Shown: piece after piece, positions 40-37,318 of the stretch | Numbering within the stretch: position 1 is the stretch's first letter | Layout of the letters: every line of letters starts with the position of its first letter | NCBI GenBank assembly: GCA_001802945.1 | Contig: MHAK01000138.1 | Coordinates: 1-37,318, forward strand | Direction of reading: 5' to 3' | DNA from: Ignavibacteria bacterium RIFCSPLOWO2_12_FULL_56_21 | Lineage (GTDB): Bacteria; Bacteroidota; Ignavibacteria; UBA10030 | Length of the DNA stretch: 37,318 nt | Translations under genes and position numbers: made by a program | Notes under the pieces: generated by a model | Seen by the model: only the letters and a program-made list of their open reading frames with translations | The model's database searches: none | Told to the model about the DNA's origin: nothing

Positions 40-531
40 TCAGAAGAAGTAGTAGTGAAGAGAAGCCTGAGGCAGCGGAAGCACAGTGCCGTTGGAAAAA
101 TACACAAACATTCCCTGGATCGTTACATGGACCGCATCTTTGACGTTGAATTCGCTCCCGAGACCGGCGCCGAGCCGAAAAGGACCCGTCAAGTCGTTCT
201 TGCTATAGCCTGAATAAAAGTATCCCAGGGCGCCGACAAAAAAGAAGCGGTTCGAGCTCCCACGGGTCAAATCGTGCTGGTACTCGGCACCCACAGACAT
301 TGACAATTTCGCCGTGGTCTTGATAATGCCGAATACTCCCTGAAAGGAACTCTTGGAAGGCAGATGTGTGCGAAAACTGAGTCCGATGCCCGAAGCGGCT
401 CCCGCTGAAAAGCCAAGCCCATACACAGATTTGCCCAGACTTTCCGCCTGGTTGAGCCCGGAAGTGCCGACTTGAGCGAACGATGGAAAGGAAACGGCGA
501 TCACAAAAGCGACAGCAGACAAAATTCGCAT
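40..531 (-). CDS. small outer-membrane beta-barrel-like protein
   Basis: No family is recognised by name. The protein of about 163 residues opens with a clear Sec signal peptide (MRILSAVAFVIAVSFPSFAQ, cleavage after AQ). Alternating glycine, serine and aromatic stretches typical of small barrels follow, and it ends in YYFF, the aromatic C-terminus expected of a BAM substrate. An upstream ATG at 573 would add 14 residues without signal character, so 531 is preferred; neither start has a good Shine-Dalgarno sequence. It stands alone, separated from the upstream aminopeptidase gene by about 225 bp holding heptamer arrays and a hairpin. By inference it sits in the outer membrane; substrate and role are unknown. 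Confidence 0.6.
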   Translation of the reverse strand: MRILSAVAFVIAVSFPSFAQVGTSGLNQAESLGKSVYGLGFSAGAASGIGLSFRTHLPSKSSFQGVFGIIKTTAKLSMSVGAEYQHDLTRGSSNRFFFVGALGYFYSGYSKNDLTGPFRLGAGLGSEFNVKDAVHVTIQGMFVYFSNGTVLPLPQASLHYYFF

Positions 532-582
532 GAGAGGATTGGGAGAAAAGTAGGTGTCGGTTCGAAGAAACATAAGGAAATT

Positions 583-638
583 AGACGACAGACAACAGAG
601 GCCGAAGAACAGAAGTCAGAGGTCAGAATTCAGATATG
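583..638. repeat. degenerate heptamer tandem array 1
   Basis: Eight consecutive 7-nt units run without a break: AGACGAC, AGACAAC, AGAGGCC, GAAGAAC, AGAAGTC, AGAGGTC, AGAATTC, AGATATG. Most follow the pattern AGAnnnC. The array lies between the barrel gene and the aminopeptidase gene. No coding or RNA role is apparent. Confidence 0.75.
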
Positions 639-653
639 CTCTTCCGCTACATT

Positions 654-702
654 CTGCAATCCGCGTTCCGCACTCGCCATTCGACACTCGAAAATCGACA
701 AC
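654..702. repeat. degenerate heptamer tandem array 2
   Basis: Seven 7-nt units are in register: CTGCAAT, CCGCGTT, CCGCACT, CGCCATT, CGACACT, CGAAAAT, CGACAAC. The unit drifts from CCGCnnT to CGAnAnT along the array. It is 15 nt from array 1 and abuts the hairpin at 702-737. Confidence 0.7.
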
Positions 703-737
703 CCGCCTGCCATTCGAGAACTCAGATGGCGGGCAGG
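702..737 (-). terminator. probable terminator hairpin after the aminopeptidase gene
   Basis: The 12-nt arms at 702-713 and 726-737 pair except for one wobble and one mismatch, around a 12-nt loop. On the minus strand the hairpin follows the stop of the 757-1713 gene by about 20 nt and is followed by TTGTCGATTTTCG, a weak T-rich tail. It may end transcription of the aminopeptidase gene. Confidence 0.4.
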
Positions 738-756
738 TCGACAATCCCTCCGTGCT

Positions 757-1713
757 TTACACAAGCATCTTCCCGTCTTCCAATATTTTCCTCCCATCAA
801 ACATAACTGTCGGTTTTGTTACCAAACCGTCGAGATGACTCTGCACCCTCACACTTCCTCCCATCGATATGTTGTCTCCGAACGCCACATGAATTGTCCC
901 CATCACTTTCTCATCTTCCAGGATCACACCGGAGATGACCGCCTTGTCGTTCGTTCCAATGCCGAATTCAGCGACATTCCGGGCGAGCCTTCCCTTCTCT
1001 TCCCAAATGCGAAGGAGTTTCTCAGCTTCCGGACCACCTGTGACTTCTTCGCCGTACCCCTTTTTCACGACGATACGCAGCGGACGAGTGACTTTGCCGA
1101 GTGCTGCCATGGACCCGTCGACAACCAGAATTCCTTCCGATTCTCCTTCGAGCGGTGCAAGGAAGGCTTCTCCCGTCGGCAGGTTTCCACCCGTTCCTTT
1201 TTCGCGGAAGAGTCCATGACTTGCGATCGCCTTCCGCCCTCTCACGGGCATTGTAAGGTTGGTTCCGGCAGGGGCCGTGACTTTTACGACGGACGTTCTG
1301 TCAAGCAGGTTTGCAAGTTTGTTGGTTCGCTCGGCGATGGCGAAGTAATCGGCATTCATGCACCGAACCATTACCTCTTCAGTGATGCCGGGAAGCGTAC
1401 AGATGCGCACGCCCAACGCCTGTGCAGACCTTTTTGCGTCCGTGTGGGTCATCGACATGCTTGTCGGACAGAACACAAGGTCCATCCGCTTCATCAACTC
1501 AGCAACTTCGGCCGGCGGTTCTTCTCCGGGGACTCGACGTGGTGTCATCTCGACAAGGAAGACCTCATTTCCCTGTTCGTGCACTACATCAAACAGTGCT
1601 CTGCCAATAGAGCGGCACGGCTCGTCTGTGATAACGGCGACTTTCTCGCCTGGACGAAGTCCCATGCAGTCCCGTACTGCTATCAAAGCGGCATTCTGTA
1701 ACGGAGTCGACAT
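757..1713 (-). CDS. M29-type metallo-aminopeptidase
   Basis: This 318-residue protein resembles the thermophilic aminopeptidase (AmpS/aminopeptidase T, peptidase M29) superfamily, cytosolic dimetal enzymes that remove N-terminal residues from peptides. Candidate metal ligands lie in GGNLPTGEAFLAP (175-187, E182), AEFGIGTN (248-255, E249), TIHVAFGDN (H275) and SHLDG (H293, D295). It is shorter than the classic enzymes of about 410 residues, as in the short bacterial/archaeal branch annotated as leucyl aminopeptidase; exact substrate is not predictable. The ATG at 1713 has no clear ribosome binding site. It lies downstream of an MFS gene and the REP-like element, in a region that also encodes a peptide transporter and proline dehydrogenase, which suits peptide breakdown. 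Confidence 0.8.
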   Translation of the reverse strand: MSTPLQNAALIAVRDCMGLRPGEKVAVITDEPCRSIGRALFDVVHEQGNEVFLVEMTPRRVPGEEPPAEVAELMKRMDLVFCPTSMSMTHTDAKRSAQALGVRICTLPGITEEVMVRCMNADYFAIAERTNKLANLLDRTSVVKVTAPAGTNLTMPVRGRKAIASHGLFREKGTGGNLPTGEAFLAPLEGESEGILVVDGSMAALGKVTRPLRIVVKKGYGEEVTGGPEAEKLLRIWEEKGRLARNVAEFGIGTNDKAVISGVILEDEKVMGTIHVAFGDNISMGGSVRVQSHLDGLVTKPTVMFDGRKILEDGKMLV

Positions 1714-1733: not shown

Positions 1734-1845
1734 GGTGCTAGTGCCGTTCCCAATAACCAATCTTGTGTTCTCGTTTACAGAAGCATTGGGAACGAGCACT
1801 AGTGCACGCTCCCACACAGTCTTTATTAGTGGGAGCGGCACTAGT
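1734..1845. repeat. REP-like double palindrome
   Basis: Two imperfect hairpins lie back to back. AGTGCCGTTCCCAAT (1740-1754) pairs with ATTGGGAACGAGCACT (1785-1800). AGTGCACGCTCCCAC (1801-1815) pairs with GTGGGAGCGGCACT (1829-1842). ACTAGT motifs mark the junction (1798-1803) and the right edge (1840-1845). Short palindromes containing TTGGGAACG are typical of REP elements moved by TnpA_REP/RAYT proteins. No transposase is in the window. The element may also stop transcription from the MFS gene at 1854. Confidence 0.6.
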
Positions 1846-9550: not shown

Positions 9551-9590
9551 AGAAAACCGCGAATACACGCGAATACACGCAAATGAATAT
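9551..9590. repeat. decamer array upstream of spmA
   Basis: Four 10-nt units: AGAAAACCGC, GAATACACGC, GAATACACGC, AAATGAATAT, the middle two identical. The same family occurs as an inverted pair at 18091-18200. It fills much of the 142-bp gap before spmA; no convincing promoter was found there. Confidence 0.6.
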
Positions 9591-17472: not shown

Positions 17473-18183
17473 TCAGCGGAGGTCCACTACTTCCGAGCCC
17501 GCAGGGGGCGTGAATTCGAAGGCAGAATCTTTCACGTTAGTATTGAGGCGAACCGCGTTGATGGCATATGTTGTCTCAGTTTCGTTCTGATCGACGATCT
17601 GAATCTTCCGAACTTCCCACGTCGACTCGAGCACCCATAACCTAACAGTCTTAATGAATGACCGGTCGTCTTTTGGCAGCAGTTTCAGCTGCAGGGCCGT
17701 CCCTTGCGGCAGCTGCTCCCGTCCCAGCACCGATGTATAGTAGCTTTCCGGGAGATTCAGGAGAAATTCTTCCGGCGAAACGGAATTTCGCCGTTCCTTA
17801 TACGTGTCCACAACCACCTGCTTGTTCGCCGGCGTGTAGGCCCACACCGTCGCGCCGTCTGTGATCAGCGTCTGGTGTTCCGATTCCAGGCGGTATCGCT
17901 TCGGCTTCTTAAAGACCAGGCTTCCCTTGAATGTCTGTTCGACGTTGGCATATCCAAGCTTCACGGTCTGTTCGAACTTCGCCGATACGTCGTCAATCAT
18001 GTCGTATCGCCGTTGCAGTCTGTCCGTAACATCCTTGACACCGGGTAGAGACTGGGACACTGCCAGAGTCATGGACAGCAGTATGAGAAAACACACCGCG
18101 AATGGACGCGAATACGTGTGTTGAGAAACACTGCTCGAATGAAGTGGCTTCCCTATGACTTCCAGGATACTATTCGCGTTCAT
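17473..18183 (-). CDS. lolA: outer-membrane lipoprotein carrier protein LolA
   Basis: LolA carries lipoproteins across the periplasm from LolCDE to the outer membrane. The family pattern is clear: SAKFEQTVKLG, GSLVFKKPKRYRLES, LITDGATVWAYTPANKQVVVD and SPEEFLLNLP. The frame opens at ATG 18183, giving 236 residues, but its first 28 codons run through a decamer repeat and spacer, and the hydrophobic signal (VCFLILLSMTLAVSQ) begins only at residue 30. A GTG at 18096 would start there but lacks a charged n-region and a ribosome binding site. The true start is uncertain. It lies 33 bp after ftsK, an order seen in many Gram-negatives. Confidence 0.88.
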   Translation of the reverse strand: MNANSILEVIGKPLHSSSVSQHTYSRPFAVCFLILLSMTLAVSQSLPGVKDVTDRLQRRYDMIDDVSAKFEQTVKLGYANVEQTFKGSLVFKKPKRYRLESEHQTLITDGATVWAYTPANKQVVVDTYKERRNSVSPEEFLLNLPESYYTSVLGREQLPQGTALQLKLLPKDDRSFIKTVRLWVLESTWEVRKIQIVDQNETETTYAINAVRLNTNVKDSAFEFTPPAGSEVVDLR

Positions 18184-18200
18184 TAGCGTTCATTCGCGGT
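18091..18200. repeat. inverted pair of decamer arrays around the lolA start
   Basis: The left array has three 10-nt units, ACACACCGCG, AATGGACGCG, AATACGTGTG (18091-18120). The right array (18171-18200), read on the other strand, is ACCGCGAATG, AACGCTAATG, AACGCGAATA. The two are inverted copies 50 nt apart. The right copy supplies the ATG annotated as the lolA start; the left copy overlaps the codons before the signal peptide. Confidence 0.7.
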
Positions 18201-36720: not shown

Positions 36721-36766
36721 GGAATGATGGAATGATGGAATATTGGAATAATGGAATGGTGGAATC
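36721..36766. repeat. octamer tandem array upstream of guaA
   Basis: Six 8-nt units in perfect register: GGAATGAT, GGAATGAT, GGAATATT, GGAATAAT, GGAATGGT, GGAATC. The GGAAT core is invariant and the last three bases vary. It lies in the 145-bp gap between guaA and the synthetase gene. Confidence 0.85.
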
Positions 36767-36800
36767 ACACAGCCCAATGCTGTCAGAATGTCTTTCTCTT

Positions 36801-36828
36801 TACTGCTTACTGCATACCGCCTACTGCT
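36801..36828. repeat. heptamer array overlapping a stop codon
   Basis: Four 7-nt units: TACTGCT, TACTGCA, TACCGCC, TACTGCT. The last 8 nt form the stop codon and the last two codons (K, Q) of the minus-strand synthetase gene, so the array begins inside the gene's end. Confidence 0.75.
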
Positions 36829-37318
36829 TCATCCTCTCCCTCACCATGTCCGTCACCTTCCTGAAGTCGATCTTTCCGCTCCCCATCTTTGGCAGCTCTT
36901 CAATTACGACGAATTGTTTCGGCAGTGCGATATTGGGAAGTGAAGAGCTCATCTTCTTCGTGACATCCCGCTCGTCGATACGACGAGTCACGGCAGCGAC
37001 GATCTTGGCCCCTTTGAGGTGGTCCGGCACCTCGACCACGCAACACGCGGTCCCCTCTGGGAGCAGTTTTTCGAGGACATCTTCGACTTTCACGAGCGAA
37101 ACCATTTCTCCGCCGATCTTGAGGAACCGTTTTAGTCTTCCGACATGCCACAGATATCCGTCCGCATCCATCCACCCCATATCTCCCGTATCATACCATC
37201 CGTGACGAATAGCCAACGACGTCTGTTCGAAATCGTCGAAATATCCCTTCATCACGTTGTCCCCCTGCACCAGGATCTTTCCGATCTCGCCGACAGGACA
37301 CTCTTCCCCCGTTTCATA
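36821..37318 (-). CDS. acyl-ACP/acyl-CoA synthetase, Aas-like, C-terminal part (cut by window edge)
   Basis: The C-terminal 165 residues of an AMP-forming (ANL) acyl-activating enzyme; the gene runs off the right end. Visible motifs are [25 protein letters not shown] (substrate and ATP binding), [16 protein letters not shown] (hinge and C-terminal domain) and [14 protein letters not shown] with the catalytic lysine. The GGEMVSL sequence is typical of the Aas family (2-acylglycerophosphoethanolamine acyltransferase/acyl-ACP synthetase), so activation of fatty acids for lysophospholipid repair is likely. The acyltransferase half, if any, is outside the window. Its stop codon lies within a heptamer repeat. 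Confidence 0.85.

What the first reader, a model, noticed from the sequence alone, without database searches (positions are those of the whole stretch)
583..702. Two adjacent heptamer arrays with different units
Eight AGAnnnC-type heptamers (583-638) are followed after 15 nt by seven CCGC/CGAC-type heptamers (654-702). Seven is not a multiple of three, so they are not codon-driven. Two arrays with the same period but different units side by side suggest the period, not the sequence, is what the generating or selecting process sees.
Basis: seen in the sequence. Interest (0 to 1): 0.55.

Follow-up and report, generated by a model that had tools for sequence, protein, structure and literature searches.

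The report
Genome-wide seven-base repeat arrays between genes
Two short stretches of DNA that repeat every seven letters between two genes turn out to be one example of a large class of such stretches between the genes of this uncultured bacterium, resembling little-understood repeats reported before in Geobacter and Xanthomonas.

Summary
In detail: lag-7 identity over 560-760 is 87/194, reached by 0 of 4000 dinucleotide shuffles. The arrays lie in the spacer between an M29-peptidase-like gene and an unknown ORF. Array 2 runs on in register past a dispersed 38-bp hairpin (701-738).

The locus is typical of its genome. In 995,704 bp of the same assembly I found 59 lag-7 arrays (52 non-coding) against 0.67 in shuffles; non-coding arrays of period 8-10 are rarer and of 5-6 nearly absent. 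E. coli gave 0 in 150 kb.

Period 7 is shared by many words, but sequence matters: words recur across loci, conservation inside at least three words is uneven by position, arrays lean purine-rich after stop codons and pyrimidine-rich before starts, and the two ends of a spacer are inverted copies more often than chance (not here).

Closest precedents: paired MTYCTGA heptamers of Geobacter metallireducens and GGGAATC repeats of Xanthomonas. Best mechanism: constrained multi-site binding arrays at gene borders, remodelled by slippage (0.4). Slippage alone and spread as dispersed elements remain live. Copy-number change at this locus could not be tested.

The parts
583..638 (.). array 1: eight degenerate heptamers, core CAGA..T on the + strand (TCTG on the strand of the genes)
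   Evidence: lag 7 30/49, 0 of 4000 shuffles; same word at 25+25 places of the genome with up to 3 mismatches, backward control 1+0
   Evidence: lag 7 28/42 in 654-702, 0 of 4000 shuffles; same words elsewhere
701..738 (.). dispersed hairpin ACCCGCCTGCC-N16-GGCGGGCAGGT sitting inside array 2
   Evidence: 28 pattern copies in the genome, backward control 0; 93% over 58 nt to L033
738..746 (.). continuation of array 2 (TCGACAATC) in register after the hairpin
757..1713 (-). M29-peptidase-like gene upstream of the spacer in the direction of transcription
   Evidence: Pfam PF02073, E 1.7e-10
40..573 (-). unknown ORF downstream of the spacer; start uncertain
   Evidence: no Pfam match up to E=1

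Best explanation
The two arrays are one spacer of a genome-wide class of degenerate direct-repeat arrays at gene borders, mostly of period 7, less often 8 to 10. Shown: the arrays are real, many, mostly non-coding, favour period 7, share words between loci, show uneven conservation by position in at least three words, lean in strand relative to the genes, and are rare between divergent genes. Inferred: they are held as rows of short binding sites, one per unit, for a nucleic-acid-binding protein acting on the transcript or on the DNA next to gene ends; slippage changes the number of units and mutation drifts the free positions. No binding protein is identified.
For: Frequency and period; E. 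coli 0 in 150 kb. Uneven positions, frame set by the full 7-letter word: CGATTGT (26 arrays) neighbour identity .79 .59 .86 .85 .84 .54 .56; GTGAATA (28) .96 .78 .61 .93 .84 .85 .60; CAGAAGT (21) .82 .88 .82 .76 .62 .66 .68. Free letters of neighbours in exact-core CAGANNT arrays are no more alike than any two units of the same genome: 96 of 299 pairs, 103.1 expected. Period-10 word CGCGAATNNA: 0 of 10 neighbour pairs alike, read. Strand: purine fraction .567 near the upstream stop (n=24) and .373 near the downstream start (n=31), p=8e-5; same direction beside the M29 gene in relatives.416 before (n=11) and .531 after (n=8), p=.033. Ends of one spacer inverted in 9 of 195, 0.80 expected, direct 1. 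Divergent spacers 0.23 arrays per kb against 0.67-0.76.
Against: Within single arrays, unevenness is not beyond a duplication-tree null (p<.05 in 3 of 52 own and 2 of 34 relatives' arrays). Identity falls with unit distance (.604 .533 .485 .421) and neighbours exceed shuffled order (.652 to .565), as slippage predicts. Three of six words are less clear (GCGCTTT .68-.82). I chose the words after seeing them. Some relatives hold near-perfect runs (G026, G200, G179, G058). Array-free spacers lean the same way in purines, more weakly (.522 and .443 against .602 and .391). Periods 7 to 10 fit no single helical spacing. Spacers with arrays fold no better as RNA than others (z -0.87 and -0.99, p=.54).
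Confidence: 0.4

Rival explanations
1. Slippage alone: replication favours gain and loss of about seven bases, and the arrays are neutral products in spacers that decay by mutation. The idea is credited to Mrazek and colleagues 2007 (not held; seen only as told in PMC4679880 and PMC4692102).
For: Period 7 over many words; fall of identity with unit distance and excess of neighbour identity; seven identical CAGAGAT units running in one own array; near-perfect runs in some relatives; duplication-tree null mostly not rejected.
Against: Words shared between loci, strand lean, inverted ends, position-dependent conservation pooled over arrays, neighbours' free letters no more alike than chance in the genome. 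Non-coding arrays of period 5 and 6 almost absent, which a simple cut-off by mismatch repair would not give (recalled knowledge).
Confidence: 0.27
2. The arrays are worn arms or landing places of small dispersed elements: composite words and hairpins were copied from place to place, and the seven-base rhythm is part of the copied sequence.
For: 1654 hits between spacers against 2 in shuffles; recurring word order (5 copies, 0.03 expected); hairpin with 28 copies whose flanks agree across it at lag 7 (108/196) and 14 (182/392); forms with and without hairpin; inverted ends; seven Y1 transposase matches.
Against: Different genomes use different words at the same period (0 identical consensus of 1768 own-relative pairs). 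In 30 hairpin copies of relatives (two listed twice) the heptad register is absent (lag 7 .295). Target duplication cannot be told from a heptad. Of 7 Y1 loci only L237 has a like hairpin nearby, about 580 bp away.
Confidence: 0.23
3. The spacer is a structured RNA or transcription terminator and the heptads are incidental.
For: RNA of 575-757(-) folds with z -2.09, 6 of 200 shuffles as good; the hairpin forms its own stem in that fold.
Against: No terminator-like site by scan, no Rfam family, no excess structure in array-bearing spacers (36 with, 148 without, p=.54).
Confidence: 0.06

Closest known systems
[quoted passage not shown] passages seen)
   Same: Tandem heptamers MTYCTGA (TCTG core as in array 1 read on the genes' strand), dispersed; sister classes with units of 8-9 nt; pairs on opposite strands, as found here genome-wide
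   Different: Array 1 fits MTYCTGA only in part (by reading); here many words, more and more degenerate arrays; the two arrays of the window are not an inverted pair
GGGAATC repeats of Xanthomonas and GGGGA(C/T)T repeats of Nostoc (PMC4692102; passages and the Discussion seen)
   Same: Heptamers with free positions, same strand rule around genes, inverted pairs in Xanthomonas, scarce between divergent genes
   Different: One G-rich quadruplex-forming word there; the window arrays lack runs of G and many words occur
TAACTGA repeats of Beggiatoaceae, cyanobacteria and some Bacteroidetes (PMC4679880; abstract and three sections seen)
   Same: Intergenic heptamers, mixed with other heptamers in some genomes
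   Different: Other unit; in the Maribeggiatoa genome mostly right before start codons, here on both sides of genes
REP elements (PMC3733652; passages seen), for the hairpin only
   Same: Small dispersed intergenic palindrome in a genome with Y1 transposases
   Different: No GTAG or CGTC end in the listed array-borne copies, by reading; not found flanking the Y1 genes

Membership tests
Geobacter class 3 heptamer sites | about five tandem heptamers of consensus MTYCTGA | tested here: inconclusive
   eight heptads with TCTG core in most on the genes' strand; full consensus only in part, judged by reading
Geobacter class 3 heptamer sites | pairs on opposite strands | tested here: not met
   array 1 against reverse complement of array 2 scores 6, shuffles average 6.06; genome-wide such pairs exist, 9 of 195 spacers, 0.80 expected
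Xanthomonas-type GGGAATC repeats | G-rich unit able to form quadruplexes | tested here: not met
   no runs of three G in the listed units
Xanthomonas-type GGGAATC repeats | strand rule at gene ends and scarcity between divergent genes | tested here: met
   as a tendency over the genome
TAACTGA repeats | unit TAACTGA | tested here: not met
   no such unit in the split of either array
Cyanobacterial STRR heptamers (recalled) | own set of heptamer consensus words | not tested
   only a listing was seen
REP element (hairpin 701-738) | GTAG or CGTC tag at one end and matching transposase gene | tested here: not met
   flanks by reading; Y1 loci
Intrinsic terminator | GC-rich stem followed by a T run | tested here: not met
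Protein-coding repeat | open frame with a known domain | tested here: not met
   the period is not a multiple of three
Known RNA family | Rfam match at gathering score | tested here: not met
   only a tRNA and an SRP RNA elsewhere in the window

The most novel reading that the evidence does not exclude
Bacteria of several phyla share one strand-aware way of marking gene borders with rows of short words spaced every 7 to 10 bases. The spacing is common while words differ between loci and species, and only the core and the spacing are read, so other positions run free. The Geobacter, Xanthomonas, Beggiatoaceae and cyanobacterial heptamers would be special cases.
Probability: 0.15. Interest if true: 0.8.

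Novelty: new variant of a known kind. Interest (0 to 1): 0.5.

Why it matters
Why seven-base repeats are the commonest longer simple repeats in prokaryotes is open. This genome carries many words at one period, so it can separate what depends on spacing from what depends on sequence. The strand rule at gene ends, reported before for one G-rich word, appears here over many words without G runs, which weakens quadruplexes as the general cause.

Tried and rejected
Rejected or not supported: coding origin, known RNA family, terminator or promoter by scan, excess RNA structure, arrays 1 and 2 as an inverted pair, genes rather than spacers flanked by inverted arrays (4 of 324, about 1.7 expected), the hairpin sitting in heptads in relatives as a rule, and a core-and-spacer rule within single arrays.

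My first count of CAGANNT spacers (43 of 189 identical neighbours in nine genomes) left out genomes with near-perfect runs. One search repeats it with the listed rows of 38 genomes, of 50 distinct genomes with matches (my count): 96 of 299 identical, 103.1 expected within genomes, 55.6 from one common pool. The listings were capped, so G041, G054 and others are missing and G181 has 6 of 17; one listed row of G035, not identical, was left out by a slip.

Sampling: 20 stretches were every seventh contig; with the window these 352,343 bp gave 16 lag-7 arrays at 26/42, one of them a run of N. The 40 stretches include contigs known to hold the word (C16, C48, C106, C134), so 59 per 0.996 Mb may lean high. 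Genes were called by a script of mine; starts, contexts and distances are approximate. The 99 loci of relatives include at least one genome twice (L070 and L138).

Full report
Observation. Lag-7 identity is 87/194 over 560-760, 30/49 over 583-638 and 28/42 over 654-702, with 0 of 4000 exact dinucleotide shuffles as high in each case. Six of eight units fit AGANNNC, and the second array drifts from TTCTGCA over TTCCGCA to ATCGACA. The arrays lie between an M29-peptidase-like gene (757-1713, minus) and an unknown ORF (40-573, minus), both pointing the same way. Array 2 is interrupted at 701-738 by a hairpin and goes on in register to about 746.

Not a local curiosity. The window is a contig of a 3.36 Mb, 138-contig assembly. 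Of 231 loci encoding a relative of the M29 protein, the best 80 are mostly MAGs named Ignavibacteria, Ignavibacteriales or Bacteroidetes, with Acidobacteria, some other names and one Riflebacteria. A scan that ignores the unit, over 61 stretches (995,704 bp, window included), finds 59 lag-7 arrays, 52 of them non-coding, against a shuffled mean of 0.67; totals at lags 5, 6, 8, 9, 10 and 11 are 1, 15, 15, 16, 7 and 2, of which 1, 2, 14, 11, 6 and 1 are non-coding. By proportion the genome would hold some 175 non-coding ones, fewer if the sampling leans high. E. coli K-12 gave none at lag 7 in 150 kb. In 99 loci of relatives (692,777 bp) lag 7 gave 25 arrays and shuffles 0.

Period and sequence. 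One period carries many words, among them CAGANNT, CGATTNN, GTGAATN and GCGCTNN. But words are not random: of 1326 pairs of own arrays 13 share a consensus, 1.2 expected; between own and relatives 0 of 1768 do (1.1 expected) and 50 lie within one mismatch (30.4 expected, sd 6.3). Spacers share sequence far beyond shuffles, other repeats included (1654 hits to 2). CAGANNT three times running occurs in 32 of 61 genomes of relatives, own included, and in 21 of 61 over the class (three positive genomes in both), the backward control in 2 of 61 each time. A period-10 word of the type seen in the window, CGCGAATNNA, occurs ten times in this genome and in none of 117 others of the phylum at this strictness.

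How units relate. Identity falls with distance between units and neighbours are more alike than in shuffled order. Both fit local duplication; both also follow when an array is built of blocks of different words. Pooled position profiles, with the frame set by all seven letters, are uneven in CGATTGT, GTGAATA and CAGAAGT and less so in three other words; an array may count under several words. With an exact core, the free letters of neighbours are no more alike than any two units of the same genome (96 of 299, 103.1 expected). For CGATTNN, 2 of 23 neighbour pairs are alike, counted by eye. G026, G179, G200 and G058 hold near-perfect runs, and one own array holds seven identical units, so slippage does act. 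Within single arrays the unevenness is not beyond a duplication-tree null. I read this as constraint plus slippage; the case is not closed.

Place and strand. In co-directional spacers, arrays nearer the upstream stop have purine fraction .567 (14 of 24 above one half), those nearer the downstream start .373 (6 of 31), p=8e-5; array-free spacers lean the same way more weakly.522 and .443. Beside the M29 gene in relatives the direction repeats.416 before (n=11, in 78 upstream flanks) and .531 after (n=8, in 80 downstream flanks), p=.033; array-free flanks show .509 and .483. Divergent spacers hold 0.23 arrays per kb against 0.67-0.76. The two ends of one co-directional spacer are inverted copies in 9 of 195 cases, 0.80 expected. 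The window pair is not such a case.

The hairpin. ACCCGCCTGCC-N-GGCGGGCAGGT has 28 pattern copies. Flanks agree across it at lag 7 (108/196) and 14 (182/392), while the other lags from 3 to 15 give .19 to .34. By reading, about 18 of 28 lie in heptads. The same words occur without it. The family is common in relatives (26 of 41 genomes, own included) but without the heptad register, so it looks like a separate element that often sits in these arrays here. Of seven Y1 transposase loci none was shown to own this hairpin.

What is known. In Geobacter metallireducens 16 sites, 15 of them with five MTYCTGA heptamers, in eight pairs, were called predicted binding sites of an unidentified global regulator, IHF/HU proteins being suggested, with sister classes of 8-9 nt units (PMC2700814, passages). 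In Xanthomonas and Nostoc G-rich heptamers follow the same strand rule and are scarce between divergent genes, and in Xanthomonas they form inverted pairs (PMC4692102, passages and Discussion). TAACTGA arrays are known from Beggiatoaceae and others (PMC4679880, abstract and three sections). That heptanucleotides are the commonest class, and the slippage idea, go back to Mrazek 2007, seen only through these papers. Against this, a 2025 survey finds no general enrichment of short tandem repeats in bacteria (PMC12699852, passages), and a 2019 survey derives some bacterial satellite families from heptamers (PMC6749651, abstract and one section). Nine searches, of which only named Ignavibacteria, listed no paper on such arrays in that group; most subscription journals are not held.

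Verdict. A real and typical member of a genome-wide class. The kind is known; this many-worded form I did not find described. Best mechanism: rows of constrained short sites at gene borders, remodelled by slippage (0.4). Slippage alone (0.27) and spread as dispersed elements (0.23) are not excluded.

Noticed in passing
window 1734-1845: Dispersed element with inverted repeats in the next spacer: 98% over 112 nt to L172, about 82% to other copies in L160 and L172.
   Followed up: no
window 36721-36765 and 36800-36829: Period-8 array GGAATGAT beside a period-7 array TTACTGC; GGAAT..T octamers recur in the genome sample.
   Followed up: partly
window 9558-9584 and 18172-18198: Period-10 repeats CGCGAATACA and ATTCGCGTTC; three exact-core units occur ten times in this genome and in none of 117 other genomes of the phylum, and the two free letters of neighbours never agree in those ten.
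   Followed up: partly
L234 and L235: Y1 transposase genes with the same palindrome on both sides.
   Followed up: no
L248, L258, L259, L265: In relatives the same hairpin family appears to sit inside other short repeated phrases, judged by reading.
   Followed up: no
L073 8305-8502 and L090 519-615: In Acidobacteria-named MAGs, heptamer arrays stand next to inverted copies of the same word.
   Followed up: no
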